This document shows, piece after piece, positions 11,479 through 29,399 of a DNA stretch of 64,000 bases (its first letter is position 1; each line of letters starts with the position of its first letter). The stretch comes from Isoptericola cucumis (lineage in GTDB: Bacteria > Actinomycetota > Actinomycetes > Actinomycetales > Cellulomonadaceae), in contig NZ_BMDG01000012.1 in the NCBI RefSeq assembly GCF_014635665.1, positions 62,001 through 126,000 on the forward strand. The letters run 5' to 3'. The notes under the pieces were generated by a model that had not been told where the DNA came from, ran no database searches, and was given only the letters and a program-made list of their open reading frames with translations. Position numbers and translations under genes: made by a program.

Positions 11479-14400
11479 TCAGTGCACCCCGCGCCGTCGC
11501 ACGTTCACGAGCACCACACCCGCCGCCGTCAGCAGGACGACCAGGCCCAGCAGCTTGATGAAGTCCGCACCCGTGCGCGGCAGCCAGCCCGGCAGGCCGC
11601 TGTCGTCACCACCGGTGGCGCCACCGTTCCCGCCGTCGTCGCCGCCGTCCGCGGGCGGGGGCGGCGGGCCGAACGTGTTGGTCACAGTGACCGACGCCGG
11701 GTCGGCCGCGACCGTCACCGCGCCCGGGTCGCCGCCGTCGACGCTGGAGACGGTCGAAGCGGCCGCCCCGCCGTCGTCGGTCTCCGTGACGACACAGTCC
11801 GCGCCGACCGGCAGCCCGTCGTAGGTGACCGGGTCGCCCGGGGTGAGCTCGCGCGCCGCTCCGTCGGGGATCTCGATCGACTCGCCCTGGAACGTGCACT
11901 CGAGCGCGACCTCGAACGGCCCGACGTCGTACGAGTCGCCCTCGAACTCGACCACCTTGTCCACCGCGATCGACCCGACGTCGAACGTGTTCGTCACCGT
12001 CACGGTCACCGGGTCGCCGTCCGTGCCAGGCACCACGACCTGGCCCGGCTCCCCGTCCTCCACGGTCGTGGAGACCGTGGACGACGTCGCGCCCGCGACG
12101 TCCGTCTCGGTCACGACGCAGTCGGCGCCGACCGGCAGCTCCGTGTACGTCACCGGCTCGCCGGGGGTGATCTCCCGCACGGCCCCGCCGGGGATCTCGA
12201 CCGGCTCCCCCTCGAACGTGCACTCGAGGGAGACCTCGAACGGCCCGTCGCCGTACAGCTCCGCACCGTCGCCGACCACGACCTTGTCGACCGTGAGCTC
12301 GCCCAGGTCGAAGGTGTTGGTCGCGGTGAGCGTCACCTGCTCGCCGTCGGACGGCGGCACCACGACCTCACCCGGTCCGCCGCCGTCCACGGCGGTCGAC
12401 ACTGTCGTGGACGTCGCGCCGCCGTCCTCGGTCTCGGTGACGACGCAGTCCGCTCCCACCGGGAGCCCGGCGTAGACCGCGGGCTCGTCCGGAGCCACCG
12501 TGCGGGTGGCGCCGTCCGGCACCTCGATCGCGTTGCCCTCGAACGTGCACTCGGCCGTCACCTCGAACGGGCCGGTGCCGTACTGGGCGCCCTCACCGTC
12601 CACGACCTTCTCGACGGTGAACTCACCGACGTCGTAGATGTTGGTGACGACGACCTCGACCGGATCGGCCAGGTCGGCCCCGTCGACCGGTACCGTCACC
12701 GGCTCCGACTGCGGCTCCTCGTCCGGCGGCACCAGATACGAGACCGACGTCGCGCCCCCGGTGCCGGTCTCCGTGACCGTGCACGTGTCCCCGTCCTGGA
12801 GCCCGAAGTAGAGCGCCGGGAAGCCTGGCCCGAACCGACGGGTGTCACCGCCGGGAATCGTCTCGACCGGGACACCTTGGTCGTCGACGCAGGAGATCGA
12901 CGCCTGGTACGGGAACTCGTCGAACGGGATGTCCGCGAAGAACTGCTGGTACTCGTCGACCAGCTCCTGGATCTCGTCCGGGTCGGTGGGCAGCGGGTCC
13001 GGGATCTCCGGGGGCGCCGGCAGGTCCGGCATCGGCGGGGCGAACTCGGCCGCCTCGCCGTCCACCACCTTGCGCACCACCAGCGGGCTGGTCTCGAACG
13101 TGTTCGTCACGGTGATGACGACCGGGTCCTCGTCGGCGCCGCCGACGGTGACGTCACCGCTGGTGGCGGGGTCGCCCTCGCCCACCGGGTCCATCTCGAC
13201 CGAGGTGGCCCCGAAGTCCTGGGTCTCGGTCACGGCGCACACCGCGCCGACCGGCAGGTCGTCGTAGGTGATCGTCTGGCCACCGTTGATGGTGCGCAGC
13301 TCGCCGCCCGGGATGGCGATCGTCTCGCTCTCGAAGGTGCAGGAGAGCTCGACCTCGAACGGCCCGGGCCCGTACAGCGCGCCCAGGCCGGCCAGGTCCT
13401 TGGTCACCTGCAGCGACGCCAGGTCGAACGTGTTCGTGACCGTGACCTCGGTCGGGTCGTCGCCGATCGTGACCTCGCCCGGCGCACCGTCGTCGACGGA
13501 CGAGATCGTGACCTCGGTGGCCCCGCCCGTCGTCGGCTCCGTGACGACGCAGTCCGCGCCGACCGGCAGGTCGCCGTATGTCACCGGCTCCCCCGGGGTG
13601 ATCTCGCGCGTCGCACCGCCCGGGATCTCGATGGCCTCGCCCTGGTACGTGCACTCCAGGGTGACCTCGAACGGGCCGGTGCCGTACTGCGCGCCGTCAC
13701 CGTCCACCATCTTGTCGACCACGACCTCGCCGACGTCGAACGTGTTGGTCACGGTGATCTCGGCCGGGTCATCACCCGCGGGAGGCACCACGACCTCGCC
13801 CGGGTCACCACCCTCCACGGTGGTGGAGACCGTCGACGAGGTGGCTCCCCCGTCTTCCGTCTCCGTCACGACGCACTCCGCGCCGACGGGGATCCCGTCG
13901 TAGCTGACCGACTCCCCTCCGACGAGCGTCTGCGTCGCCGGGTCGATCTCGACCGGCTCACCCTGGTACGTGCACTCCAGGGTGACCTCGAACGGGCCGT
14001 CCCCGTACAGGTCGGCGCCGGCCCCGTCCACGACCTTGTCGACCACGATCCCGCCGACGTCGAAGGTGTTGGTGGCGGTGACCTCCGCGGTCTCACCGGC
14101 GCCCACCGTGACCGGGTTCGGCGTGACGACGGTGTCGGTCGCGCCACCGTCGTCCGTCTCGGTGATGTCGCACTCGGCCCCCGCGGGCAGGTTCTCGATC
14201 GTGAGCTCCAGCGGGTCGTCGCCGCCCAGGCTCACCGAGTCCTCGTACACGGTGCGCGGCTCGCCGCCCGTGTCGTCCAGCGTGCAGACGATGTCGAACG
14301 TGAACGGCCCGTCGCCATACTCGGGTGCACCCTCGCCTTCCACCACCTTGGTGAGGTGGATCGCGCCGTCGCCGAAGGTGTTGGTCACGCCGACCTGCGT

Positions 14401-17400
14401 GCCGGCCGTGCCCTCGTCGTCGGGGACGATGACAACGTCGGCGGATGTGCCGTCGGTGGTGACCGGGTCCTCCCCCGGCTGCGTCACGGTCATCGATGTC
14501 GACGCCGCTCCCGCGGTGTCCGTCTCGGTGACCGTGCACTCGGCGTTGACCGGGAGCCCCTCGAGGGTCACGGGCGTGCCGTCGGCGTCAAGCTCCACGA
14601 CCATCGGGGTGTCCGCGTCGTATCCCTCGGCGAACACCTCCTCGCCGAGGAACGTGCACTCCACCGCGGCCTCGAACGGGCCGTAGGAGATCGGGTTGCC
14701 GTCCTGGTCGACGGCGTCGCTCACGACGTCCTTGGACAGCTCCAGGCTCGCCAGGTCGTACTCGTTCGTGATCGCGATCTGCGCGGGGGCCGTCTCGTCG
14801 CCGATCGTGACCGACTCCGGGGTGACGGTGAAGTCCGTCTGCCCGTTCACGGCCGCGTCCTCGGTCAGGGTGCACTCGGCCCCGTACGGGAGGTTCGGCA
14901 CGGTCACGGGTTCGTCCGGACTGACGGTGATCGTGACCGGGTCGAGATCGGTCTCCACCCACGTCCCCACGGCCGACGTGCACTCCACCTGGACCTCGAA
15001 CGAGTCCGGTGCGTACTGGTCGGCCCCGTCGCCCGTGACGAACTTGTTCACCTCGAGCGGTCCGGTCGCCGTCGCGACCCCGACCTTGACGCCCTCGGTG
15101 GGCAGGTTGTTCTGCCGGCCCGCCTGCTGGGTGACGACGACGCCGCCGGCGGCCGCGGAGTTCCATGCGATCGACCGGTCGCCGGCCTCCGGCGCCGCCG
15201 GCGGGGTGGTCGTCGTGCCCTCCAGCGCGATGGAGTCGCCCGGCTCGAACAGGTCGTCCTCGGGAAAGGTCACGACCACCTTCAACGCGGTGATCTGCTG
15301 GTAGACCTCTTCCGACTCGTCTCCGGTCAGCTCGACCCACCCGGTCTCCGGGTCGCCGGTCGGGCACGGCATGGTGATCGGGTCTTCGATGTCGCCCATG
15401 CAGTAGTCCTGCGTGGTCGAGTAGTAGAACGTGCCCTCGGCGCCGGGGGGGAGGTTGACGAACTCCGGCGGCGGGTCGTTGGTGAGGATCGGCGCCCACT
15501 CGGACCCGCGATCGGCGCCCGCGTACGAGCCCGTGTCGCCCGGGGTCGGCAGCCGGTCGTACAGCACCAGCGTGTCCATCGGGAGGTTGCCGACGTTCTC
15601 CACGCCGACCTGCCACGTCTCGTTGTGGCCCGGAGCGATGACCGGGGTGCACGGGTACGCGTAGAAGCCGGCCCCGTTGGGTGTGCACTCGAAGCTCTGG
15701 TCCGGGTAGGCCGGGTCGAGCATGACGTCGAGCTCGTCGTCGTCGGTCGCCTTGACGAGCTTCTGCTGCTGGAGTGCCGCCGAGCCGGTCGGGGTGACGT
15801 CGGCGTCCGCCTCGCAGGCGCCGGTCTCCTCGTTGAGCCGCTGCGCACACTCGTCCCAGGGCCGGTCGCCCGTGACACCGGCGGTGTTCTCCACCGGGGT
15901 CTGCGGCGGCAGGCCGAGCCGGAACTGCACCATCACGGTGATGGTGTAGCTCTGCCCGACCTCGAGCACCGAGCCCTCGGGGAAGCTGAACCCGAGGCTG
16001 TCGATGTCGCCCTGCTGGTCGACGGTCACCTGAGCGGCGTCGGTCGGCAGGTCGGGGGTGCTGGTGTCGGGGTCCGAGACGCCGCCCAGGGAGTAGCTGA
16101 ACGGTTCGTCCTCACCCTCGGCGATCCGCAGCTGCGCGCCCTCGTCGTCGAACGGCATCGGGTCGTCCGTCACCACGGGGTCCACGATCGGCCGGTCGCC
16201 CGTGTTCGTGAACGTGATGTTCATGGGGAACGTCGCCTCGGGCGCCTCGGTGCCGCCCGTGGGGACGCCGTCGAAGTCCTTCTCGATCATCACCCCGTTG
16301 GTCGCGTGCTGGTACAGGATCGACGACTCGGCCTCGTCGGTCGCCGACACCGGCACGAGCTCCCCCGTGTCCGGGTCGGTGACCAGGTCGGCACCCGTCG
16401 TGCTGCCCTGGACGGAGTTGCTCGCCACGCCGGGGTCGGTCTCGCCAGGGCCGGGCGGGTTCGCGGCGAGGTCCGGGAGCACCGGGCCGCCGGAGCGCAT
16501 CTCGTCGCGGCGCAGGATCTGGATCGGCACCTCCTGCGTCGGGGTCGCCGGGTTCTCCCAGATCGACCCGTCCGTGCGCGTGAAGGTGAACCGCAGGCCC
16601 TGCACGTCCTCCGGCGCCACGCCGTCCGGCAGCGTGAACGTGTCCGACGGCGTGCCGGTGACCCAGTCACCGCCCGTCACGGTGACCGGGTCCTCCGACC
16701 CGGGCTCACCGGTGAAGGTGCCGCCGGTGAAGGCATCCACCTGCACCTGCTGGATGGGGCGGGCCAGGTCGGCGCTCGGGTCGAACCCGACGAAGTCGTA
16801 CTGGTTCCAGAACTGCGGGTCGTCGTCCGTGAGCACCATCTCGACGCTGCGCGACGGGCCCTGCGGCTGGCCGGTGAGCGTCATGACCACGGGGGTGTCC
16901 CCCGGGTTGCCGTGGTTCGGCTCGACGATCGTGTCGGGGGTGAACGACTTGCCCACCTCGAGGGCGATCTCCGCGTCCTGCAGCTCCATGGTCGCGTCGT
17001 CGTTGTCGAGGCGGACGTCCTCCGTGGTGCCGCCCGGGTCGTCGATCGTCGCGGCCGACATGTTCGGCACCGGGCTGTAGTCGGCCACCGTGATCGGGGC
17101 GTCCGAGTACCGGTCGAACTGCCGCAGCTGCAACGTGAGGTCCATGCTGCCGGCCGCGCCCGGCGCGACGAGGCCGTCGTACGCCACCTCGACGCCGACG
17201 ACGTCGTCCAGGTCGCTCACGGCGAGCGCCTCGGCCTCGTCCTCGGTGAAGGTCGCCGTGGTGTCGTCGTCGTAGTGCAGCGTGACCGTAGTGGTCTCCG
17301 TGCCCTCCGGCGGCGTGAGGTCGATCGCCGTCAGGGTGAATGCGTCGAACGGCTTCGTGCCGTCCGCCGTCTCCACATCACCCGAGCCCTCGACGGTCGG

Positions 17401-20340
17401 GTCGGCCAGTCGCAGCTCCTCCACCTTGGCGGCGGAGTTGTTGGTGCCGGTGATCGTCGCGATGGTGCTCGGGTAGAACTGGGGCGGCGTGCCGTCCGGC
17501 GGCACCGAGACCGGCCCGCCGGCCCACTCCTTGTCCACGGTGACGTTGAGCGGCACGTCGAGGATCGTGGCCTCGTCGGCGTCCTCTTCCACGAAGTCCT
17601 CGCCGTCGATCGTGGCCGTGCCACGCACGGTGTTGTTCACGACCCCCGCATCGCCCGGGATGTTGTACTCCACGCCGCTGGTGTTACCGAGCACCGCCTG
17701 GCTCGGGTCGCTCCGCTTGTAGTCCCGCACCTGCCACGTGAGGTCCAGGTGGCGGCCGGTCTCTTGCGTGGAGCGGGCCACCCCGTCGCCGGGGACCGGC
17801 GCGGTCGGGTCGGTCGGGTTCTCCGCACGTGACGGCGACTCGGTGTAGGTGAGCCGCACGGACGTCGCACTCGCCTGCTCCTCGGCGGTCAGCGTGTAGC
17901 CAGGGAACGTCCCGTCACAGGCCTCTGGGCAGGGGTCGTCCGAGGCCTCGACCCAGGCGCCGTCGATGAACAGCTCGACGCTCTCCACCTGGTCGTACTG
18001 GATGAGCGGGTCCACGGTGTTGTCGATCGGCTCCACGCGCACCAGGTTGAACGCGTCGTAGAACGAGTCCTCGATCGGGACGGCCGCCGGGTCGGTGATG
18101 TCGGAGATGACCATCGGGTCCACGCCCGAGAAGCCGCCCGTGGACCACGTGATCTGGCCGGTCACCTGGTCGTCCGTACGTGCCCGCACCGTCGCAGGGT
18201 CTCCGAGCATCGTCTTGTCGATGAAGTCCCCCGGGCCCTCGCCGTCCACCGGGAACGGGTCGACCGTGTCGCAGGCCACGACCGGCTCGGTCTCCTCGAC
18301 CGTGTCGGCCGATGCCGACGACTGTCCGCAGTTCTCGATGGGGTCGTCGCGGTCGGTCGGGCCGGTGTAGTCCGCCGTGAAGTTCGGCTGGAAGGCCGTG
18401 CCGGGCGGGAAGCCGTCGTCGGAGGTGTAGACGAACTGCACACCCTCCGCGCCGGCGGGCAGGTCGCAGTTCGCCGTGGTCGGGCCCTCGAACGGCCCGC
18501 AGTCGGGCGCCGGCTCCCACGAGTCGCCGTCCCAGTAGTTCACCGTCAGGGTGGCGTTGGCCGGCACGTCCGTGCTGCGCACGCCGGTGGCCTCGAAGTT
18601 CTGCCAGAACTCGTCGGGGTTGGCCGGGTCGGTCGGGTCCTGCACCACGAACGTGTTCGCATCCGTCGTCGAACCATCGGGCCCGAACGTCGCCAGCTCG
18701 CTCGGGAGCTGCACCACGACGCTCTGCCCCGGCACCGCCGGGATCGTGGACGGCGAGATGTTCTTCTCGATGTCGGTCGCGAGCCGGTCCACCAACGTGG
18801 TGAGGGTGTCGTCCGCGAGCGCCGGGTCGGCGCTCGGCACGTCGGCCTCGATCTGGTTGGGGTGGTCGACGTTGTCGGGCTCTTGGTCGGGGTCCGTGTC
18901 GGCCGTGAACGGGACGGTCGCCTCGGCGCCGTTGGAGATGGTGCCCGTGTACTCGATGGTGAACCCGGTGACGTTGCAGCCGGCCGGCGGGTCGGGCAGC
19001 GTGTTCGGCGCCGACGCCGGGATCGGTTCACCAGGCGTGCCGTCGCAGACGAACGTCACCGAGGCGCCGGTCGCGCCGTCGGGCCACACCACGCCGGCGC
19101 CCGCACCGTCGGTGCCCCACCCGGTGAACGTGATCGGGTCGTCGCCCTCGAACACGTTGTTGGTGCCCGGCGCCGGCTCGGTGATGCTCATCGAGGTCAC
19201 CGGGGTGCCGGTGTTGGTGGCGCCCAGGGTCACCGTCGTGGGCGCGCCCGCGCTGACCTCGCCCGGGTCGAAGCTCTTCGACGCCGTGACCGAGTTGTTC
19301 GGCGGCGTGATGACGTACGTGTCGCTCGCCGTCACCGGGTCGGACGCGTCGTCACCCAGCGTGACGTTCGACTGGACCTCGTTGGTGACCGTCGTCGGGT
19401 CCTCGAGCTCCTCGACCGCCTCGCTCTGCTGCACCTCGACCGGGATCGTCGCCGTCGCACCCTGCTGGATGTCGCCGCTGAAGGTGTAGCGCACGCCCTG
19501 CACGGAGGCCGGGTCCACGGAGTCGTCGAGCGGCTCCCACGAGTCGCCGTCCCAGTACTCCTCGGTCACGTCCGTAGCGTTGGGCGGCATCTCGATGTCG
19601 CCGGTGCCCGTGTACTCGAGGTAGGTGAACGGGTTCGGGTCGGCCGTCGGGTCCACCGGGTCCTGCACGACGAGCGTGTCGACAGGGGTGTTGGAGGTGT
19701 TGGTCGCCCCGAGCGTCATCGTCGCCTCGGTGCCGGGCGCGGCCAACGCGCCCTCCGGCTCGATGGTCTTGGTGGTCTCCGAGGCGAGGCTCAGCTCGAC
19801 GACGGGGGTGATCTCGACCGTGTCGGACTCCGGGTCGGCGTTGTCCGCGTCGACGGTGGCGGTGTTGGGGATCGGCACGCCGTCTGCGCTGTACGGCAGG
19901 TCGGGGTCCACCGTCGCCGTCACGACGATCAGCGCCTGCTGGCCGTTCGGCGTCTCGTCGGCGGTGTACGTCACCGTGTTGGTCTCGGTGTCCGCGACGA
20001 CGTCGCCGCTCCCGCTGCTCACCGACGCGTCCACGAGCACGAGCTCGTCCGGCAGCTCGTCCGTCATCACCGTGTTGGTGCACGGGTCGTTGTTCGGGTC
20101 CGAGCAGGAGATCTGGATCGCGTACTGCACCTGCTGCCCGGGCTCGTACGGGCCCTCGCCGCTGGTGACCTGCTTGTTGATCCCCCACTCCGCCGCCGAC
20201 GCCGTCGTCGCCGGCACCAGCAGCATCGGCAGCGCGAGCGCCACGGCGCCCAGCACGGACCAGCCGCGGCTGAACCGCCGCCTGTCCCGACTCCTCCCGT
20301 GCCGCGCCGTCCGGCTCGCTGACCTGCGCCCCTCCACCAT
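11479..20340 (-). CDS. Giant LPxTG-anchored repeat surface protein (DUF11-like and DUF5979 domains)
   Basis: 2953-residue predicted cell-wall-anchored adhesin or stalk. A signal peptide (basic start, ALALPMLLVPATTASAA) is followed by about 1700 residues of DUF11/isopeptide-like beta-sandwich domains recognised by recurring TNT/N-T and VTNTF-like endings and WEP-x-DD, then ten DUF5979 repeats of about 100-110 residues (residues about 1759-2891), a Pro/Gly/Asp linker, the sorting signal LPRTG (2920-2924), a hydrophobic helix and a basic tail RRRGVH. This is the substrate layout for a sortase; none lies in the window. ATG 20340 is chosen for GGGAGG six bases upstream; ATG 20358 lacks a site. Single-gene unit. 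Role in adhesion or aggregation is inferred from architecture. Confidence 0.88.
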   Translation of the reverse strand: MVEGRRSASRTARHGRSRDRRRFSRGWSVLGAVALALPMLLVPATTASAAEWGINKQVTSGEGPYEPGQQVQYAIQISCSDPNNDPCTNTVMTDELPDELVLVDASVSSGSGDVVADTETNTVTYTADETPNGQQALIVVTATVDPDLPYSADGVPIPNTATVDADNADPESDTVEITPVVELSLASETTKTIEPEGALAAPGTEATMTLGATNTSNTPVDTLVVQDPVDPTADPNPFTYLEYTGTGDIEMPPNATDVTEEYWDGDSWEPLDDSVDPASVQGVRYTFSGDIQQGATATIPVEVQQSEAVEELEDPTTVTNEVQSNVTLGDDASDPVTASDTYVITPPNNSVTASKSFDPGEVSAGAPTTVTLGATNTGTPVTSMSITEPAPGTNNVFEGDDPITFTGWGTDGAGAGVVWPDGATGASVTFVCDGTPGEPIPASAPNTLPDPPAGCNVTGFTIEYTGTISNGAEATVPFTADTDPDQEPDNVDHPNQIEADVPSADPALADDTLTTLVDRLATDIEKNISPSTIPAVPGQSVVVQLPSELATFGPDGSTTDANTFVVQDPTDPANPDEFWQNFEATGVRSTDVPANATLTVNYWDGDSWEPAPDCGPFEGPTTANCDLPAGAEGVQFVYTSDDGFPPGTAFQPNFTADYTGPTDRDDPIENCGQSSASADTVEETEPVVACDTVDPFPVDGEGPGDFIDKTMLGDPATVRARTDDQVTGQITWSTGGFSGVDPMVISDITDPAAVPIEDSFYDAFNLVRVEPIDNTVDPLIQYDQVESVELFIDGAWVEASDDPCPEACDGTFPGYTLTAEEQASATSVRLTYTESPSRAENPTDPTAPVPGDGVARSTQETGRHLDLTWQVRDYKRSDPSQAVLGNTSGVEYNIPGDAGVVNNTVRGTATIDGEDFVEEDADEATILDVPLNVTVDKEWAGGPVSVPPDGTPPQFYPSTIATITGTNNSAAKVEELRLADPTVEGSGDVETADGTKPFDAFTLTAIDLTPPEGTETTTVTLHYDDDTTATFTEDEAEALAVSDLDDVVGVEVAYDGLVAPGAAGSMDLTLQLRQFDRYSDAPITVADYSPVPNMSAATIDDPGGTTEDVRLDNDDATMELQDAEIALEVGKSFTPDTIVEPNHGNPGDTPVVMTLTGQPQGPSRSVEMVLTDDDPQFWNQYDFVGFDPSADLARPIQQVQVDAFTGGTFTGEPGSEDPVTVTGGDWVTGTPSDTFTLPDGVAPEDVQGLRFTFTRTDGSIWENPATPTQEVPIQILRRDEMRSGGPVLPDLAANPPGPGETDPGVASNSVQGSTTGADLVTDPDTGELVPVSATDEAESSILYQHATNGVMIEKDFDGVPTGGTEAPEATFPMNITFTNTGDRPIVDPVVTDDPMPFDDEGAQLRIAEGEDEPFSYSLGGVSDPDTSTPDLPTDAAQVTVDQQGDIDSLGFSFPEGSVLEVGQSYTITVMVQFRLGLPPQTPVENTAGVTGDRPWDECAQRLNEETGACEADADVTPTGSAALQQQKLVKATDDDELDVMLDPAYPDQSFECTPNGAGFYAYPCTPVIAPGHNETWQVGVENVGNLPMDTLVLYDRLPTPGDTGSYAGADRGSEWAPILTNDPPPEFVNLPPGAEGTFYYSTTQDYCMGDIEDPITMPCPTGDPETGWVELTGDESEEVYQQITALKVVVTFPEDDLFEPGDSIALEGTTTTPPAAPEAGDRSIAWNSAAAGGVVVTQQAGRQNNLPTEGVKVGVATATGPLEVNKFVTGDGADQYAPDSFEVQVECTSAVGTWVETDLDPVTITVSPDEPVTVPNLPYGAECTLTEDAAVNGQTDFTVTPESVTIGDETAPAQIAITNEYDLASLELSKDVVSDAVDQDGNPISYGPFEAAVECTFLGEEVFAEGYDADTPMVVELDADGTPVTLEGLPVNAECTVTETDTAGAASTSMTVTQPGEDPVTTDGTSADVVIVPDDEGTAGTQVGVTNTFGDGAIHLTKVVEGEGAPEYGDGPFTFDIVCTLDDTGGEPRTVYEDSVSLGGDDPLELTIENLPAGAECDITETDDGGATDTVVTPNPVTVGAGETAEVTATNTFDVGGIVVDKVVDGAGADLYGDGPFEVTLECTYQGEPVEIDPATQTLVGGESVSYDGIPVGAECVVTETEDGGATSSTVSTTVEGGDPGEVVVPPAGDDPAEITVTNTFDVGEVVVDKMVDGDGAQYGTGPFEVTLECTYQGEAIEIPGGATREITPGEPVTYGDLPVGADCVVTEPTTGGATEVTISSVDDGAPGEVTIGDDPTEVTVTNTFDLASLQVTKDLAGLGALYGPGPFEVELSCTFESETIAIPGGELRTINGGQTITYDDLPVGAVCAVTETQDFGATSVEMDPVGEGDPATSGDVTVGGADEDPVVITVTNTFETSPLVVRKVVDGEAAEFAPPMPDLPAPPEIPDPLPTDPDEIQELVDEYQQFFADIPFDEFPYQASISCVDDQGVPVETIPGGDTRRFGPGFPALYFGLQDGDTCTVTETGTGGATSVSYLVPPDEEPQSEPVTVPVDGADLADPVEVVVTNIYDVGEFTVEKVVDGEGAQYGTGPFEVTAECTFEGNAIEVPDGATRTVAPDEPAVYAGLPVGADCVVTETEDGGATSTTVSTAVDGGGPGEVVVPPSDGEQVTLTATNTFDLGELTVDKVVVGDGAELYGDGPFEVSLECTFEGEPVEIPGGAVREITPGEPVTYTELPVGADCVVTETDVAGATSSTVSTTVEDGEPGQVVVPGTDGDPVTVTVTNTFDVGSIAVDKVVEFEGDSYDVGPFEVALECTFQGESIEIPDGAARELTPGDPVTYDGLPVGADCVVTETDDGGAAASTVSSVDGGDPGAVTVAADPASVTVTNTFGPPPPPADGGDDGGNGGATGGDDSGLPGWLPRTGADFIKLLGLVVLLTAAGVVLVNVRRRGVH
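11665..15068 (-). repeat. Ten DUF5979-type protein repeats within the surface-protein gene
   Basis: Ten divergent units of about 320 bp encode the pattern V-x-K-x-V...YG-x-GPFEV-x-LECT...P-GA-x-CVVTET...GGAT...VTNTFD. Each unit keeps a lysine in the first strand, a Glu-rich VTETE box, a terminal Asn in TNTF, and two cysteines. The copies are similar enough at DNA level (for example GTGACCTCGAACGG recurring on the plus strand) to invite unequal recombination. The seventh unit carries an extra Pro/Asp-rich insert at about 12930-13046. Confidence 0.85.
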
Positions 20341-20580
20341 CAGTGCCCTCCCACACATCGGTGCACAACCGCCCGCGCGCGACCTTGCGCGCAAGGACCA
20401 CCTACGAAGGTGTCAGAAATCACCCGGCTTGGCGCGCCGAAACGGGAGATCCGCCCCAGGACGGTCTTTCGCGAGTTCTGGGACGCCTCGGCTCAGTCCC
20501 GCTCACCGGCTCGCGAGCGGGGACCGGCGCGACGAGAGTGGGAGAAGGCGAGGTCAGAGCGCACGGCGAAGGAGCCGACC

Positions 20581-21018: not shown

Positions 21019-21753
21019 TCAGGCCGCCGCGTCGTCGAGGGTGCCGGCGGCCACGCCCCAGAGGTCCGCGAGCGCGGCCTGCCCGCCGTCGGTCACGACC
21101 AGCCCGCGCGTGCCGCTGCGCCGGGCCACCCACCCGGCACCGAGGAACCTGGTCGCGACGGCGGCACCCAGCGCCCCGGCCAGGTGCTCGCGGCGCTCGG
21201 TCCAGTCGGGGCACGCCCGGGTCGTCGGCCGGCGGCTCGACCGCGCCGCGTCGACGTCGACGCCCGCTCCGGACAGCCCTGCCTGCCCGGCGTCGGTCAG
21301 CACGAGCGCGTCGCCCAGCCAGCCGCGCGCCGCCATCGCCTCGGTGAGGGCCACGCCGAGGCGTCCGGCGAGGTGGTCGTAGCAGAGGCGGGCGCGCGCG
21401 AGCCGCGCCGCCTCGGCCGACTGCCGGAGGGTCACCACCGGGGCCGGCGGGCACAGCCGGCCCAGCGTCTCGAGCGCGTCGGCCACCCCGACGTCGGCCA
21501 GCCGGTAGAACCGTTGCCGGCCTCGCCGTGCCACCGCGACGAGCCCGGCGTCCGCGAGCGCGGTGAGGTGCTCGCTCGCGGTCGACGGGCGCACCCCCGC
21601 GGCGTGCGCGAGCTCGCTCGCGGGCCGGCTCGACCCGTCGACCAGGAGGTTCAGCATCGTCGAGCGCGCCGGCGCCGCCAGGGCGCGCCCGACGGCGGTG
21701 AAGTCCTTGCCGCTCACGTCCTTGCCCGTGCGCCGGGCCGCGCGTCCACCCAT
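21019..21753 (-). CDS. ArsR-type winged-helix regulator
   Basis: 244-residue regulator with an N-terminal ArsR/SmtB winged helix (LAAPARSTMLNLLVDG ... ELAHAAGVRPSTASEHLTALADAGLV ... RRGRQRFYRL, residues about 22-85). It is about twice the length of classical ArsR proteins. The C-terminal half holds two similar segments (ALVLTDAGQAGLSGAGVD and GLVVTDGGQAALADLWG), a tandem arrangement seen in larger actinobacterial members. No classical CxC metal site is present, so it may sense a non-metal signal. It is divergent from the ACT - SulP - BASS operon with 64 bases between start codons, and a perfect palindrome fills that gap. Confidence 0.85.
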   Translation of the reverse strand: MGGRAARRTGKDVSGKDFTAVGRALAAPARSTMLNLLVDGSSRPASELAHAAGVRPSTASEHLTALADAGLVAVARRGRQRFYRLADVGVADALETLGRLCPPAPVVTLRQSAEAARLARARLCYDHLAGRLGVALTEAMAARGWLGDALVLTDAGQAGLSGAGVDVDAARSSRRPTTRACPDWTERREHLAGALGAAVATRFLGAGWVARRSGTRGLVVTDGGQAALADLWGVAAGTLDDAAA

Positions 21754-21760
21754 GCGGCCA

Positions 21761-21811
21761 CCGTAGGGCGGGGACGGTTCGGCCGCTGCCGAACCGTCCC
21801 CGCCCTACCGT
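21761..21811. promoter_or_regulatory. Perfect 21-bp inverted repeat with mirror-image leaderless promoters
   Basis: Two 21-base arms (21763-21783 and 21788-21808; arm core GGGCGGGGACGGTTCGGC) are exact reverse complements around a CGCT spacer. The outer end of each arm forms part of a -10 hexamer: TACCGT (21806-21811) lies 6 bases before the ATG at 21818, and on the other strand TACGGT (21766-21761) lies 6 bases before the ATG at 21753. One regulator dimer or pair could thus silence both divergent leaderless genes at once. The adjacent ArsR protein is the obvious ligand. Confidence 0.7.
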
Positions 21812-21817
21812 CCCGGC

Positions 21818-22231
21818 ATGACCACCACGCACCTGCAGGACCTGGAGATCGTCCTCGCCCACACCCCCGGCACCCTGGCCGCCCTCGGGCGCGCTCTCGG
21901 CGAGGCGGGGATCAGCCTCGAGGGCGGTGGCGTCTTCGCCACGGGCCCCACCGCCGTCGCGCACTACCTCGTCGACGACGGCCCCGGGGCCCGCGAGGCC
22001 GCCACGCGGGCCGGTCTGGGGGCCGCCGTGCTGCACGACGTCGTCACGCTGCGGCTCGACCAGGAGACCCCGGGCCAGCTCGGCGCCGTCGCCGCCCTGC
22101 TCGCCGGCGCGGGCGTCAACGTCGAGGCGCAGTACAGCGACCACGCCGGGAACCTCGTGCTCGTCGTCGACCCGGACCAGCACGACGCGTGCTCCCGCGT
22201 CGCCGACGACTGGCGTCGACGCGGGCGCTGA
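21818..22231 (+). CDS. Tandem ACT-domain amino-acid-binding protein
   Basis: 137-residue protein made of two ACT-like modules. The first opens with LEIVLAHTPGTLAALGRALGEAGISLEGGGVF (residues about 8-39) and the second with VTLRLDQETPGQLGAVAALLAGAGVNVEAQYSD (about 76-108). Both contain the Pro-Gly-x-Leu turn and following helix of ACT domains, which usually bind an amino acid at a dimer interface to control a partner. No enzyme domain is attached, so it is likely a stand-alone sensor. It is the first gene of the operon with SulP and BASS transporters and lacks a ribosome binding site, fitting the leaderless promoter. A role in sensing an amino acid related to the transported anion is inference. 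Confidence 0.82.
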   Translation: MTTTHLQDLEIVLAHTPGTLAALGRALGEAGISLEGGGVFATGPTAVAHYLVDDGPGAREAATRAGLGAAVLHDVVTLRLDQETPGQLGAVAALLAGAGVNVEAQYSDHAGNLVLVVDPDQHDACSRVADDWRRRGR

Positions 22232-22313: not shown

Positions 22314-24026
22314 GTGCCCCAGTCGAAGCCCACCCCGCGCGACGTCGTCTCCGGCTTCGTCACCGGCCTGTTCTCCATCCCCGAGGGCATGGCGTACGCG
22401 ACGGTGGGCGGGTTCTCGGCCCCGCTGGGCCTGTGGTCCGGCGCCGTCCCGACGGTGATCGGGTCGATCTTCTCCCGCACGGTCCTCATGGTCACCACGC
22501 TGACCAGCGCCATCGCGCTGTCCGCCAGGAGCGTGCTCACCGACGCCGGGCTCGACCCCGGCGACCTCGGCTCGATCGCGGCGCTCACGCTCATGGTCGG
22601 GCTGTGGATGGTGCTGCTGGGCGTGCTGAGGCTGGGCTCGGTGATGTCGTTCGTCTCGACGGCGGTCATGACGGGCTTCACCGCCGGCATCGCCGTGCAG
22701 ATCGTCGCCGGCGTGGTGCAGGACGCGACCGGCTACGAGCCGCAGTCGCACAACACGGTGGGCAAGCTCGTCGAGGCCATCGTGCACGTCGGCGCGTGGG
22801 ACGCACCGACGGTCGCCGTCGCCGGCGCGACCGTCGCCGCGTGGGCGGCCCTCAGCCTGGTCCCGCGGCTGCGCAAGACGGCCACGCTGGTGTCGCTGGT
22901 CGTCGTCACGGTCGTCGTGACGCTGCTGGGAGCCGGCGTCGAGACCGTCTCCGACATCGCCGCCATCCCCCGCTCCCTGCCGCCGCTGACGCTGCCCGAC
23001 GTCGGTGCGCTGCCGGAGCTGACGTCCGGCGGGCTCGCCATCGCGCTCATCGCCCTCGCGCAGGCGGCGGGCATCGGGGCCGCCGTGCCCAACCCGGACG
23101 GGACGCGCACCGACGTCTCCAAGGACTTCACGGCCCAGGGGCTCGCGAACGTCGCCGGCGGGTTCTTCGGCGCGCTGCCGACGGGCGGCTCGCTGTCCCG
23201 CACGGGCGTCGCGACCAGCGGCGGGGCGCAGACGCGCTGGGCCGGCATCTTCGCCGGCGTGTGGCTCATCGTGCTCGTGCTCGTCCTCGGGCCCCTGGCC
23301 GGCGCCATCCCGATGGCGGTCATCGGCGGCCTGCTCCTCGTCATCGGCGGCGAGCTGGTCGTGGGCCGGTGGGCCGACATCGTGCTCGTGGTCCGCACGT
23401 CGTGGCTGTCCGCCGCGGCGATGGTCGTGACCTTCGTCGCCACCACCCAGCTGCCGCTGCAGCAGGCCATCTTCCTCGGAGCCGGCCTGTCGATCGTGCT
23501 GTTCGCCGTGCAGTCCGCCAAGCGCGGCCGCATCGTCGAGCTGGTCCCCACCCCCGACGGCGAGGGCGGCGGCGACTTCACCGTGGCCGACCCGCCCGCC
23601 GACCTGCCCAGCGGGCGCACCACGGTGCTGCACTACGTGGGCTCCGGGTTCTTCGCCGAGGTGAACCGGCTCGAGGAGGAGTGGCCCCACACCGCGAGCA
23701 CCCGCGACGCCGGGCTGGTGATCTCGCTGCGCGGCTCGGCCGGCATCCCGTCGACCACGTTCCTCAAGTCTCTCGACCGCCTGCTGGACCGCTGGCACGA
23801 CCACGGCGTCGAGGTCGTCGTGTGCGGGGTGCCGGACGAGCTGCGGCAACGCTTCGAGACGGGCGGCGTCTCCGGGCGGCTGCAGGGCGCGCTCGTCGGC
23901 GACGCCGGCGGCGTGCTCGCCTCCCTGCGCCGGGCCTACGACCTGGCGGAACGCCGCCGGGCCGCACGCGCCGCCCTCTCCCCGCCCGCCCCTGACGACG
24001 CCCCGGACGACAAGGACCCCGCATGA
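22314..24026 (+). CDS. SulP family anion permease with C-terminal STAS-like domain
   Basis: About 570-residue transporter of the SulP (SLC26-like) family. The membrane part (residues about 10-400) shows the SulP opening DVVSGFVTGLFSIPEGMAYATVGG, many hydrophobic helices and GFFGALPTGGSLSRTGVATSGGAQTRWAGI, the conserved family stretch. Residues about 425-545 form a cytoplasmic STAS-like domain (GRTTVLHYVGSGFFAEV, VVVCGVPDELRQRF). Substrates in the family are sulfate, bicarbonate or dicarboxylates. The GTG at 22314 is the best in-frame start near the conserved region, with only a weak ribosome binding site, so the exact start is uncertain. It follows the ACT gene and overlaps the BASS gene by 4 bases (ATGA). 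Confidence 0.85.
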   Translation: MPQSKPTPRDVVSGFVTGLFSIPEGMAYATVGGFSAPLGLWSGAVPTVIGSIFSRTVLMVTTLTSAIALSARSVLTDAGLDPGDLGSIAALTLMVGLWMVLLGVLRLGSVMSFVSTAVMTGFTAGIAVQIVAGVVQDATGYEPQSHNTVGKLVEAIVHVGAWDAPTVAVAGATVAAWAALSLVPRLRKTATLVSLVVVTVVVTLLGAGVETVSDIAAIPRSLPPLTLPDVGALPELTSGGLAIALIALAQAAGIGAAVPNPDGTRTDVSKDFTAQGLANVAGGFFGALPTGGSLSRTGVATSGGAQTRWAGIFAGVWLIVLVLVLGPLAGAIPMAVIGGLLLVIGGELVVGRWADIVLVVRTSWLSAAAMVVTFVATTQLPLQQAIFLGAGLSIVLFAVQSAKRGRIVELVPTPDGEGGGDFTVADPPADLPSGRTTVLHYVGSGFFAEVNRLEEEWPHTASTRDAGLVISLRGSAGIPSTTFLKSLDRLLDRWHDHGVEVVVCGVPDELRQRFETGGVSGRLQGALVGDAGGVLASLRRAYDLAERRRAARAALSPPAPDDAPDDKDPA

Positions 24027-24868
24027 CCGACGTCCTCACCACCCTCGCGCAGGTCGCGGTCCTCACGTTCGTCGTGACGTCGATGGTCGCCCTCGGCCTG
24101 TCGCTCACGGTGGTGCAGATCCTCACGCCGCTGAAGGACGCGAAGCTGGTGCTGCTCGGGCTGGTGACGAGCTTCGTCGTCGCGCCGGCCGCCGCGTGGG
24201 GCATCGCGGCGCTGTTCGGCCTGAGCGACGACCAGACGCTCGGGCTGCTGCTGCTCGGCGTCGCCGCGGGCGCGCCGTTCCTGCCCAAGCTCGCGCAGCT
24301 GGCGCACGGCGAGGTGCCCTACTCGGTGGGCCTCATGGTGCTGCTCATGGTCGTCACCGTCGGCTACGTGCCGCTGGTGCTTCCGCTGCTGGTCGACGGC
24401 GTCACCGTGAGCGCCTGGGACATCGCCCGCCCGCTGCTGCTGCTCATGCTGCTGCCGCTCGCCGTCGCGCTCGTCGTGCGAGCGCGCTACCCCGACGCCG
24501 CGAGGCTGGCACCGGTCCTCAACCGGGTGTCGACGACGGCGCTCGCCCTCGGCATCGGCGCCGCGGTGCTGGTCGGCCTGCCGCAGATCTGGGACCAGGT
24601 CGGCACCGGGCTGCTGCTCGCGACCCTGCTGTTCGTCGTCGTGTGCCTCGCCGTCGGGTACCTGCTCGGCGGGTCGGGGCGGTCCCAGCGCGTCGTGACG
24701 TCCCTCGGGTCGGCGCAGCGCAACCTGTCGGCGGCGCTGCTCATCGCCGGCACCAGCTTCGTCGGCACCCCCGTGGTGCTCGTGACCGTCATGGTGGCGT
24801 CGCTGCTGCTCACCGCCGTGCTGCTGCTCGTCGCCGCGGAGCTCGGCAAGCGGGCGTCCCCCAAATAG
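24023..24868 (+). CDS. Bile acid:sodium symporter (BASS) family transporter
   Basis: 281-residue membrane protein with about nine to ten helices and the BASS/NTCP landmarks LGVAAGAPFLPKLAQ and GSAQRNLSAALLIAG. Bacterial members carry organic anions (keto acids, pantoate and similar) with sodium. Its ATG overlaps the SulP stop, so both transporters are made from the ACT-led operon, suggesting coordinated anion transport. Its TAG stop codon forms the first three bases of a 20-bp palindrome that belongs to the next gene's control region. The substrate cannot be predicted. Confidence 0.85.
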   Translation: MTDVLTTLAQVAVLTFVVTSMVALGLSLTVVQILTPLKDAKLVLLGLVTSFVVAPAAAWGIAALFGLSDDQTLGLLLLGVAAGAPFLPKLAQLAHGEVPYSVGLMVLLMVVTVGYVPLVLPLLVDGVTVSAWDIARPLLLLMLLPLAVALVVRARYPDAARLAPVLNRVSTTALALGIGAAVLVGLPQIWDQVGTGLLLATLLFVVVCLAVGYLLGGSGRSQRVVTSLGSAQRNLSAALLIAGTSFVGTPVVLVTVMVASLLLTAVLLLVAAELGKRASPK

Positions 24869-24921
24869 AAGTTATATAACTTCTAGGGCCTCTTGCTCAG
24901 AGTTATATAACTCCCCATACT
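24866..24921 (+). promoter_or_regulatory. Double AT-rich operator and leaderless promoter of the AlbA_2 gene
   Basis: Two palindromes share the core AGTTATATAACT: TAGAAGTTATATAACTTCTA at 24866-24885 (20 bp, perfect) and GAGTTATATAACTC at 24900-24913 (14 bp, perfect). Their centres are 31 bp apart, about three helical turns, so bound dimers would face the same side. The second palindrome fills the 17-base spacer between TTGCTC (24893-24898) and CATACT (24916-24921). The start codon at 24929 follows the -10 by 7 bases with no ribosome binding site, so the transcript should be leaderless. Such AT-rich sites stand out sharply in this GC-rich DNA. Confidence 0.75.
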
Positions 24922-24928
24922 GGTCTGC

Positions 24929-26623
24929 ATGGATGCAGAGCGGGGGGCTCGCCTCGTCGCGGAGGGCGAAAAGCTCGACGTCGAGTTCAAGAGCGAGGAG
25001 CGGCAGCTCTATGCGGACAAGGAGCTGATCGAGGCAGTTGCCTGTCTCGCCAACGGGTCCGGTGGGGTGCTGTTCCTCGGCGTCGAGGACGACGGGACGG
25101 TCACGGGCGCTCGCCCACGGCACGGCACGCGGACGGACCCCTTCCGGGTCCAGGCCACGATCGCCAACGGGACGATCCCGCCATTGCCCGCACGCGTGTC
25201 TCTGCTCACGATCGCGGAGAAGGGCGTGGTCGCGATCGAGGTCGACGAGGCCACGACGCCCGTCGGTACCAAGACGGGCCGGTACACGCGGCGAGCTCTT
25301 CGGAACGACGGCATGCCCGAGTGCACCCCCTACCCCCTGCACGAGATGTTGAGCACGACCACGAGCGCCGGCGAGTCCGACTACGCCACGCTACGTGCAC
25401 CCGGCGCGACCTGGGCGGATCTCGACTCCACCGAGTTCGACCGATTCCGACGCCTCGCGGCCAGTCAGTCGGGTGACGGCACCCTCGCCACGCTCTCCGA
25501 CGTCGAGATCGCGCGATCACTGGGCGTGACCGATCCCGGAAGAGCCGAGCCGACCCCGCTCATGGGGGCACTACTCCTCTTCGGCTCGGCGACGGCGCTC
25601 GCACGCTTCGCACCAACCCACGAGACGTTCTTCCAGGTGATGCGCGGCTCCGACGTCGAGGTCAACGAGCATATCGTCGGCGCCCTGCTCAAAGCCGCCG
25701 AGGAGCTCTTCACACGCTTCTCCCCCTACAACACAGAGGAGGAGGTCGACGCCGGACTGGTGCGCCTCGCCCTCCCGCGGGTGCCCGAGCGCGCTCTGCG
25801 CGAGGTGATCGCCAACGCGCTCGTGCACCGCGACTACACGATGACGGGCGCCGTGCGCCTCCAGGTGGGCGATGACGCCGTCGTCGTCTCGAGCCCGGGC
25901 TCGTTCCCTCGCGGCATCAGCCTGGACAACCTCCTCGACCACAGTCGTCCCCGCAGCCGGACGCTGGCGGACGCATTCAAGCGCGCCGGTCTCGTAGAGC
26001 GCACGGGACGAGGGATCCCCCGGATGTTCGAGAGCACGCTCCGGATCGGACGCGACGCCCCCGACTACTCCCGCAGCACGTCGGACGCCGTCGTGGCGTC
26101 GTTCGCGACGTCCGACGCCGACGCCGCCCTGGCCAGGTTCGTCTTCGAGAAGGAGTCGGCGCAGGGCAGCCCGATGGCGCTCTCCGTCCTCCAGGTGCTG
26201 CACGAGCTGCGGCGCGAGGGCGATCTCAGCGTGGTCGAAGCGGCTCGGCTCCTGCAGAAGGTCGAGGGCGAAGCTCGCGCCTCGTTGACGAGGATGGTGG
26301 AAGCCGGGCTGGTCGAACCCCGCGGGTCGGGTCGCGGCCGCCGATACCACCTCTCGGCCGCGACGTACCGGGCCCTGCAGTCCGACCCCAGCGACGTCCG
26401 GGTCCGCGGCTTCGACCGGATTCAGCTGCGACAAATGGTGCTCACCTATGTCCGCGCGCACGGCAAGATCACCCGTGCCACGACTGCCGAGCTCTGCTCG
26501 CTCGCTCCCCCGGCCGCGACAGCACTGCTGCGCTCGATGGTCGACGCCGGAGATCTCGAGCTGCGCGGTGAGCGTCGGGGTGCCCACTACGTGCTCCCTG
26601 GAACAGGTTCGGCCGAGGGCTGA
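24929..26623 (+). CDS. Schlafen/AlbA_2-domain ATP-binding regulator
   Basis: 564-residue protein. Residues about 10-140 form an AlbA_2 (Schlafen-like, DNA/RNA-binding) domain with VEFKSE (18-23) and LANGSGGVLFLGVEDDG (40-56). Residues about 275-375 form a GHKL-type ATP-binding domain as in RecG-like C-terminal regulators: N-box E292-x3-N296-x3-H300, SSPGSFPRGI at 321-330 and GRG at 360-362. Two winged helices follow (about 415-476 and 495-556). Such proteins are annotated as transcriptional regulators; some relatives occur in defence loci or toxin-like contexts. It stands alone, with no toxin, helicase or phage gene beside it, and has a dedicated palindromic operator suited to autoregulation. 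Function beyond that is unknown. Confidence 0.85.
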   Translation: MDAERGARLVAEGEKLDVEFKSEERQLYADKELIEAVACLANGSGGVLFLGVEDDGTVTGARPRHGTRTDPFRVQATIANGTIPPLPARVSLLTIAEKGVVAIEVDEATTPVGTKTGRYTRRALRNDGMPECTPYPLHEMLSTTTSAGESDYATLRAPGATWADLDSTEFDRFRRLAASQSGDGTLATLSDVEIARSLGVTDPGRAEPTPLMGALLLFGSATALARFAPTHETFFQVMRGSDVEVNEHIVGALLKAAEELFTRFSPYNTEEEVDAGLVRLALPRVPERALREVIANALVHRDYTMTGAVRLQVGDDAVVVSSPGSFPRGISLDNLLDHSRPRSRTLADAFKRAGLVERTGRGIPRMFESTLRIGRDAPDYSRSTSDAVVASFATSDADAALARFVFEKESAQGSPMALSVLQVLHELRREGDLSVVEAARLLQKVEGEARASLTRMVEAGLVEPRGSGRGRRYHLSAATYRALQSDPSDVRVRGFDRIQLRQMVLTYVRAHGKITRATTAELCSLAPPAATALLRSMVDAGDLELRGERRGAHYVLPGTGSAEG

Positions 26624-26667
26624 ACCCTCGCCGTGCGGTGGGGGGCGAGCAGTGCCAGCCTGGCGCC

Positions 26668-28664: not shown

Positions 28665-29009
28665 TCAGAAGACCAGGACCAGCACCAGGCCGGCCAGCCC
28701 CAGCAGGCACGTGCCGGCGCAGATGACGGCGATGCGGCGGCCGTGGCGCAGCCGCGGCTCGTCGTGCGTCAGGTGGGCGTGCGTGTGCCGCGCGTGGCTC
28801 TTGGCGAACCACCACAGGGGCGGGGTGAGGACGAGGGCGACGGCGGCGGCGAGCACCAGCGCCCGGGAGCCCTCGACGGTCGGCAGCACCTGGATCGCGA
28901 CCAGGCAAGCGGCCGTGAACGACAGCAGGGTGCGCCGCCACGCCAGCGCGGTGCGCTCCACCTGGAGCCCGCGGTCGCGGTCCGGGCCGACGAGCGGCTG
29001 GTCGGTCAT
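28665..29009 (-). CDS. DUF202 domain membrane protein
   Basis: 114-residue protein with three predicted membrane helices and the DUF202 signature LQVERTALAWRRTLLSFTAACLVA near the N-terminus. A His-rich loop HARHTHAHLTHDE lies between helices two and three and could bind a metal. Function unknown. It is preceded at 29037 by a YidH-type DUF202 gene in the same direction, 27 bases away, and both proteins share the same fold; tandem DUF202 genes are common and may form a hetero-oligomer. Confidence 0.85.
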   Translation of the reverse strand: MTDQPLVGPDRDRGLQVERTALAWRRTLLSFTAACLVAIQVLPTVEGSRALVLAAAVALVLTPPLWWFAKSHARHTHAHLTHDEPRLRHGRRIAVICAGTCLLGLAGLVLVLVF

Positions 29010-29036
29010 CGCCTCTGCCCCGTCACGTGGCCGGCC

Positions 29037-29399
29037 TCATCTCAGCAGGAGCGCGAGCAGGACGAGGACGCCGACCACGCTGACCGTGGCCACGAGGAGG
29101 AAGCCGGTGATCGCGCCGGGCAGCGGGCCGTGCTCCCGCATCGCGCGCTCGGTGCGCGCCCACTCGATCGCGGCCACCACCGGGACGGCGGCCCCGGCGA
29201 CCAGCAGCACGATCGCGGACGCCAGCCGCAGCCGCGGCTCCATCGGCAGGTCGAGCGCCTCGAGCGCCGTACCTCCGGCGATGAGCCCGAGGGCCGTGCG
29301 GATCCACGCGAGGATGGTGCGCTCGTTGGCCAGCGAGAACCGCGGGTCCGGCTCGGTGCCGCGCTCGTACACCCAGCGGGGAAAGCGTTCCCGGCTCAC
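29037..29399 (-). CDS. YidH-family DUF202 membrane protein
   Basis: 120-residue membrane protein with the YidH/DUF202 signature DPRFSLANERTILAWIRTALGLIAGGTAL and two further helices. I chose GTG 29399, which has GAGGTG upstream and begins at the usual family position (VSRERFPRWVYERG). A GTG at 29447 in frame would add 16 residues and lies within an apparent -10-like TAGGGT, making it less likely. It leads a two-gene DUF202 operon. Function is unknown. Confidence 0.82.
   Translation of the reverse strand: MSRERFPRWVYERGTEPDPRFSLANERTILAWIRTALGLIAGGTALEALDLPMEPRLRLASAIVLLVAGAAVPVVAAIEWARTERAMREHGPLPGAITGFLLVATVSVVGVLVLLALLLR

What the first reader, a model, noticed from the sequence alone, without database searches (positions are those of the whole stretch)
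24866..24928. Two identical-core AT-rich palindromes 31 bp apart, one filling a promoter spacer, in front of the AlbA_2 gene
TAGAAGTTATATAACTTCTA and GAGTTATATAACTC share the 12-bp core AGTTATATAACT. The second sits exactly in the 17-base spacer between TTGCTC and CATACT, and the start codon follows 7 bases later. Centre spacing of 31 bp (about three turns) predicts cooperative binding on one face. In such GC-rich DNA two perfect AT-rich dyads cannot be chance. The upstream one includes the stop codon of the previous gene, so selection has fitted an operator across a coding end.
Basis: partly seen in the sequence, partly recalled or inferred. Interest (0 to 1): 0.75.

Follow-up and report, generated by a model that had tools for sequence, protein, structure and literature searches.

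The report
Twin operator of a self-silencing Schlafen gene
Two matching AT-rich mirror-image sites in the promoter of a bacterial Schlafen-type gene are most likely the landing pads through which its own protein keeps the gene switched off; several relatives carry different sites in the same place, so the switch seems to travel and evolve with the gene.

Summary
TAGAAGTTATATAACTTCTA (24866-24885) and GAGTTATATAACTC (24900-24913) have centres 31 bp apart and are the only AT-rich ones among 72 perfect palindromes of 12 bp or more in the window. The own genome holds the core nowhere else, even with one mismatch. An 87%-identical orthologue in Isoptericola luteus, behind a different gene, keeps both cores, their spacing and both proposed promoter hexamers (36 of 36 bases); 11 of the other 27 bases differ. 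Orthologues often carry other dyads or repeats in the same place (12 of 25 genes, against 11 of 100 control genes), phased with the helix in the repeat-bearing subset. In the compared cases the site follows the protein, not the host genus. So this is most likely a twin operator by which the protein, which ends in two winged helix-turn-helix domains, represses its own promoter. The protein carries the Schlafen RNase triad and an ATPase domain; three relatives sit among defence genes, so a mobile, self-silenced defence cassette is likely. The claim that selection fitted an operator across a coding end is not supported: the gene was inserted into the upstream gene's tail and the outer arms are not conserved. 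Binding, repression and RNase activity are untested.

The parts
24866..24885 (.). upstream dyad (operator 1), TAGAAGTTATATAACTTCTA; part conserved in I. luteus is GAAGTTATATAACT (24868-24881)
   Evidence: outer TAGA/TCTA not conserved
24900..24913 (.). downstream dyad (operator 2), GAGTTATATAACTC, filling the promoter spacer
   Evidence: core and right flank conserved in I. luteus, left flanking G not
24893..24898 (+). proposed -35 hexamer TTGCTC
   Evidence: identical in I. luteus; weak consensus
24916..24921 (+). proposed -10 hexamer CATACT, 7 nt before ATG, so a leaderless mRNA is predicted (inference)
   Evidence: identical in I. luteus; NATACT 6-8 nt before the chosen start also in L069, L038, L071 (read by eye)
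24929..26623 (+). gene for the 564-aa Schlafen AlbA_2 - HATPase_c_4 - tandem wHTH protein
24968..25297 (+). SLFN_AlbA_2 domain (residues 14-123) with candidate RNase triad E14, E19, D54
   Evidence: Pfam; profile alignment to Schlafen structures; triad from passages of PMC5862951
25853..26086 (+). HATPase_c_4 domain, residues 309-386 (GHKL-type ATPase; the type name is recalled)
26180..26344 (+). wHTH 1 (MarR_2), residues 418-472
26417..26593 (+). wHTH 2, residues about 497-555
   Evidence: three helices and two strands in the model; phrog_1687 MarR match 500-555
24023..24868 (+). upstream SBF-family transporter gene, into whose 3' tail the Schlafen gene was inserted
26605..26645 (+). 3' junction: the gene's last codons and stop lie in sequence that is the transporter gene's tail in a relative without the gene
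   Evidence: L065; similar 3' flank in L062

Best explanation
The two dyads are a dedicated twin operator for negative autoregulation. The encoded protein (N-terminal Schlafen AlbA_2 RNase-like domain, GHKL-type ATPase domain, two C-terminal winged helix-turn-helix domains) binds both dyads as a dimer or pair of dimers on one face of the DNA, about three helical turns apart. Operator 2 lies between the -35 and -10 elements, so binding shuts out RNA polymerase and keeps a potentially toxic RNase at low level. A signal such as phage infection, perhaps read through the ATPase domain, would release the protein, raising expression and freeing the RNase. Shown here: the sites, their conservation in I. 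luteus, recurrence of dyads or repeats in about half of the relatives, genome-wide uniqueness, protein domains and triad, insertion history, defence context of some relatives. Inferred: binding by the protein itself, repression, oligomeric state, signal, RNase activity, defence role.
For: Uniqueness: core with up to 1 mismatch only at these two places in the own genome; in 18 genomes of the genus exact cores only in the two genomes that carry the close gene, two each; exact core in 3 of 221 family genomes. Footprint: between window and I. luteus 52 of 63 bases before ATG agree and all 11 differences fall outside the 36 bases of cores and hexamers (hypergeometric 2e-5). Same-place recurrence: self-similarity of the 85 bp upstream is p<=0.05 in 12 of 25 genes, the window's own included (Fisher 1.3e-12, inflated by related members), against 11 of 100 control genes (Fisher exact 1.1e-4). 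Phasing: repeat offsets cluster on 10.5 bp (R=0.67, p=0.0002 for the 18 of 25 with p<=0.15; R=0.70, p=0.0018 for the 12 with p<=0.05; p=0.056 for all 25). Site follows protein, not host: same-genus G013 has a 47% orthologue with CCCATAGTT-N6-AACTATGGG and no core, while L006 of another genus (50% to L007) has nearly the same site; L069 of another family (65%) has a GTTATATA pair 30 bp apart. The protein itself has two wHTH domains. An ArsR-type wHTH gene in G817 has the same GAGTTATATAACTC just before it, so a wHTH protein can plausibly read this kind of site.
Against: No binding or expression data. 13 of 25 genes do not reach p<=0.05, and four of five genes read from family f36 (L035, L036, L037, L039) show no AT-rich dyad. 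The single-dyad score reaches p<=0.05 in only 8 of 25. Upstream similarity tracks all protein domains about equally (rho 0.33-0.40), so it does not single out the wHTH and could partly be plain common descent. The phasing is not significant in the full set, and the 7 genes with p>0.15 point to another phase. The promoter hexamers match the consensus poorly. The wHTH tail also matches AlkZ-like DNA glycosylases (PF06224: just below its cut-off here; above it in L080 and L104; 9zd6), so it could serve another kind of DNA contact.
Confidence: 0.75

Rival explanations
1. The dyads are operators for another, host-encoded regulator (for example an ArsR- or MarR-type protein), not for the Schlafen protein.
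For: GAGTTATATAACTC stands directly before an ArsR-type gene in G817, a genome with no Schlafen orthologue at E<=1e-60; the own genome has 15 matches to that regulator, and one ArsR-type gene lies about 3 kb away (21019-21753).
Against: The best own-genome match to the G817 regulator is 39% over 96 residues. The nearby ArsR-type gene has a quite different GC-rich inverted repeat in front of it. A host regulator would normally have further sites, yet the core is unique. The site type differs between two orthologues within one genus.
Confidence: 0.15
2. AT-rich DNA before a horizontally acquired gene, recognised by a xenogeneic silencer (Lsr2-type, recalled) or simply the promoter's own AT-rich character.
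For: The gene is sporadic (8 of 221 family genomes at E<=1e-60, own genome included) and inserted.
Against: Perfect dyad symmetry, identical cores, 31-bp spacing and base-exact conservation of the cores are not needed for recognition by AT content.
Confidence: 0.05
3. The palindromes are ends or recombination sites of the inserted cassette, or act as RNA hairpins.
For: The block clearly shared with I. luteus begins at operator 1 and an insertion did occur here.
Against: No copy of the core at the 3' junction; operator 2 lies inside the proposed promoter; related genes elsewhere have other dyads in the same position; both dyads lie upstream of the predicted transcription start, so they would not be in the mRNA (inference).
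Confidence: 0.04

Closest known systems
[quoted passage not shown] passages seen)
   Same: Same domain order AlbA_2 - HATPase - wHTH; one relative found here lies between PglX and PglZ genes (L089)
   Different: Here a stand-alone gene with its own promoter and twin operator; the passages seen mention no operator or autoregulation of these genes
SLFN13 tRNA/rRNA endoribonuclease (PMC5862951; passages seen)
   Same: AlbA_2 lobe aligns with 5yd0; E205, E210, D248 correspond to E14, E19, D54 by alignment and spacing (that 5yd0, listed as Schlafen 8, is the rat SLFN13 structure of that paper is recalled)
   Different: One lobe instead of a pseudo-dimer; fused to ATPase and wHTH domains; activity unknown
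Autorepressed toxin-antitoxin operons and defence repressors such as BrxR/CapW, CapR and RptR (PMC12255303; abstract and passages seen)
   Same: A repressor that acts on the promoter of a toxin or defence unit; RptR binds a palindrome repeated in the promoter
   Different: There effector and repressor are separate proteins; here effector-like and DNA-binding domains are in one chain
3LMM, DIP2311 of Corynebacterium diphtheriae, listed as uncharacterised protein
   Same: Closest full-length solved relative, E 3.7e-51 by profile
   Different: About 22% identical; the matched stretch (profile 28-557) begins after the first two triad residues

Membership tests
SLFN_AlbA_2 (Schlafen) family | Pfam PF04326 above its gathering score | tested here: met
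   55 bits against cut-off 25.3
Schlafen endoribonuclease | three-carboxylate triad (E205/E210/D248 in rat SLFN13) | tested here: met
   E14 and D54 in at least 90%, E19 in all of 21 aligned proteins; correspondence by alignment and spacing
Schlafen endoribonuclease | RNA cleavage | not testable with these tools
   needs purified protein
BREX-linked Schlafen - minimal histidine kinase - wHTH proteins | AlbA_2, HATPase and wHTH in one chain | tested here: met
BREX-linked Schlafen - minimal histidine kinase - wHTH proteins | close to BREX core genes | tested here: not met
   10 window neighbours between 21022 and 31891 scanned against PADLOC: the only match is Csa3 wHTH models on the ArsR-type protein; the rest of the window was not scanned. 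Met in relative L089
Autorepressed gene with cognate operator | dyad operator overlapping the core promoter | tested here: met
   operator 2 fills the proposed spacer, conserved in I. luteus; promoter itself is a proposal
Autorepressed gene with cognate operator | binding and repression by its own product | not testable with these tools
   needs gel shift and reporter assay
Type II toxin-antitoxin operon | two adjacent genes, toxin and antitoxin | tested here: not met
   no conserved partner gene: neighbours on both sides differ between window and I. luteus

The most novel reading that the evidence does not exclude
A class of stand-alone bacterial Schlafens that are toxin and repressor in one chain: operator DNA both silences the gene and holds the RNase inactive, so that leaving the DNA during infection switches on synthesis and activity at once; each lineage has evolved its own phased operator together with its protein.
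Probability: 0.25. Interest if true: 0.75.

Novelty: new variant of a known kind. Interest (0 to 1): 0.5.

Why it matters
Bacterial Schlafens are reported as defence RNases (PMC12839542, passages), but I saw nothing in my searches on how a cell keeps such an RNase quiet. If this reading holds, the wHTH tail explains it: the protein represses itself through a phased twin operator that travels with the gene. The site makes this directly testable with one protein and one 65-bp fragment, and gives a handle for predicting operators of a large, little-studied family (COG2865 type; that label is recalled).

Tried and rejected
A plain dyad score was only moderately informative (8 of 25), so a combined direct-plus-inverted repeat score was tried next; two scores were thus looked at, and the p<=0.15 cut was chosen after seeing the scores. 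The 25 genes include close pairs and groups (for example L001/L002, L035/L036/L037/L039, L074/L075), so they are not independent. Correlating upstream similarity with single domains did not single out a DNA-binding domain. More distant AlbA_2 genes with crudely guessed starts gave 3 of 17 at p<=0.05, too weak to build on. The search of named genomes found 2 loci. AlphaFold gave a mediocre model (pLDDT 69.5, pTM 0.50, 7 sequences); only the two wHTH domains and the Foldseek matches were used. In the listings of nine paper searches I saw no paper on an operator of a bacterial Schlafen, and one search listed no paper that looks like an operator study of this core; apart from passages of three papers only listings were seen. 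[quoted passage not shown] Rejected: host ArsR regulator, AT-content silencing, recombination ends (see rivals).

Full report
What is there. At 24866-24885 and 24900-24913 lie two perfect AT-rich palindromes with the same 12-bp core and centres 31 bp apart. The second fills the 17-bp spacer between TTGCTC (24893-24898) and CATACT (24916-24921), and ATG follows 7 bases later. In this window of 70-77% GC (2-kb steps) they are the only palindromes of 12 bp or more that are at least 60% AT (2 of 72), and one is the longest of all. In the own 4.46-Mb genome, with up to 1 mismatch, the core is found nowhere else.

Conservation. In I. luteus the gene has another upstream neighbour, an ACT-domain gene whose counterpart in the window ends about 2.6 kb upstream of operator 1. 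Still both cores, their 31-bp spacing, TTGCTC and CATACT are identical: 52 of 63 bases before ATG agree and all 11 differences fall in the 27 bases outside cores and hexamers (hypergeometric p about 2e-5). The outer TAGA/TCTA arms of the first palindrome are not kept. In the 22 bases further upstream 12 agree. Among 18 genus genomes, exact cores exist only in these two; G007 and G012 each have one one-mismatch site. Among 221 family genomes the exact core occurs in 3. The third, G817, has one GAGTTATATAACTC directly in front of an ArsR-type gene next to an AHSA1-type gene. The closely spaced exact pair occurs in 1 of 396 order genomes (I. luteus not drawn).

Family view. Upstream regions of 26 genes were printed and 25 of them, the window's own included, were scored; starts were chosen by eye. 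Many show dyads of other sequence in the same place: CCATAGTT-N6-AACTATGG in L006 and L007, an inverted repeat with 16-bp arms in L004, CTAACATGTTAG copies 21 bp apart in L079, TTTCTCTGAATTCAGAGAAA in L075. A score that combines direct and inverted self-similarity of the 85 bp before the start reaches p<=0.05 in 12 of 25, against 11 of 100 neighbouring control genes from crude gene calls (Fisher exact 1.1e-4; 8 of 18 for the closer set, p=0.0017). The simpler dyad score gave 8 of 25. Repeat offsets cluster on the 10.5-bp helical repeat: R=0.67, p=0.0002 in the 18 with p<=0.15; R=0.70, p=0.0018 in the 12 with p<=0.05; p=0.0009 in 14 after dropping four near-duplicates; but p=0.056 in all 25. 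Four of five genes from family f36 (L035, L036, L037, L039) have no AT-rich dyad; their upstream sequences look alike in another motif (by eye). The site follows the protein in the compared cases: L007 in the same genus has a different operator, close to that of L006 from another genus, while L069 from another family shares the window type. Upstream similarity correlates with protein identity over 21 genes (rho 0.36, permutation p=0.0005), for all domains about alike.

The protein. Residues 14-123 are SLFN_AlbA_2, 309-386 HATPase_c_4, 418-472 MarR_2; the model adds a second wHTH at about 497-555 (phrog_1687). A profile of 21 relatives matches Schlafen structures (5yd0 at E 3.9e-6; SLFN5, SLFN11, SLFN12, SLFN14 below 0.001). 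The SLFN13 residues E205, E210 and D248, any of which when mutated diminished activity according to PMC5862951 (passages), fall on E14, E19 and D54; E19 is invariant and the other two are kept in at least 90% of the 21 proteins. The closest full-length solved relative is 3LMM. The wHTH tail also resembles AlkZ-like glycosylases.

Insertion and context. Five of 18 genus genomes, own included, have the transporter gene. Of the four relatives, G010 (L065) and G007 (L067) have transporter and alkylsulfatase genes adjacent without the Schlafen gene; G013 (L066) has other genes there; in G009 (L068) a stretch matching window 28665-29390 lies between them. The last codons and stop of the window gene align with the transporter tail of L065, and I. 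luteus has a similar 3' flank. So one insertion into the transporter tail, with later loss of the transporter genes in I. luteus, is the simplest history (inference). In G013 the junction holds an HTH-nucleotidyltransferase gene and a HepT-like gene (HepT-like just below its cut-off), a toxin-antitoxin-like pair. The gene is sporadic: matches at E<=1e-60 in 8 of 221 family and 15 of 396 order genomes, own included. Neighbours were called for 19 of 20 loci of relatives; from these, 10 neighbours in 4 loci were picked by eye for PADLOC, so this is not a rate. Three loci gave defence matches: PglX and PglZ on either side (L089); Wadjet JetB, JetC and JetD upstream (L096, with PDC-M09A and GajB-type helicase matches downstream); an Orf5/HEC-06-type gene and a type IIG/DISARM-like protein (L104). 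The L100 protein gave none. In the window itself 10 neighbours gave no defence match beyond Csa3 wHTH models on the ArsR-type protein. [quoted passage not shown]

How it most likely works. A self-repressing gene, probably for defence: the protein's wHTH domains hold two phased dyads, and the promoter-proximal one blocks the polymerase site. The predicted transcription start is at or next to the ATG, so the dyads would act as DNA and not as RNA. Release by an infection signal would raise expression. Shown: sequence, conservation, phasing in a subset, domains, insertion, context of some relatives. Inferred: binding, repression, signal, RNase activity, defence.

Verdict. Observation confirmed; interpretation partly supported. 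The kind (autoregulatory operator) is ordinary; the setting, a Schlafen RNase candidate fused to its own DNA-binding tail with lineage-specific phased operators, is a new variant and readily testable.

Noticed in passing
window 21763-21808: Perfect GC-rich inverted repeat with 21-bp arms (GTAGGGCGGGGACGGTTCGGC, 4-bp loop) between a divergent ArsR-type gene (21019-21753, -) and an ACT-domain gene (21818-22231, +); looks like an operator of the ArsR-type gene.
   Followed up: partly
L066 2336-3309: In another genome of the genus (G013) the same transporter/alkylsulfatase junction holds an HTH-nucleotidyltransferase gene and a HepT-like gene: possible small hot spot for toxin-antitoxin or defence cassettes.
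   Followed up: partly
L112 1500-1513: GAGTTATATAACTC directly before an ArsR-type gene next to an AHSA1-type gene in a genome (G817) without a close Schlafen orthologue.
   Followed up: partly
L012 1254-1293: 40-bp perfect palindrome AAGTTGTTTCAAAGTTGTTTAAACAACTTTGAAACAACTT before a more distant AlbA_2 gene.
   Followed up: no
L035, L036, L037, L039 upstream regions: Relatives without AT dyads share another motif (roughly GTAGC-TGACGCC-GCG-GATCA, by eye) before the start; could be a different promoter or operator type.
   Followed up: no
window 24929-26623 and L080, L104: The C-terminal tandem wHTH region matches the AlkZ-like DNA glycosylase family (above cut-off in L080 and L104, just below here) and 9zd6 by fold.
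   Followed up: no
window 11479-20394 (-): 2971-residue open frame that reads as a repetitive surface protein with a C-terminal hydrophobic stretch (by eye).
   Followed up: no
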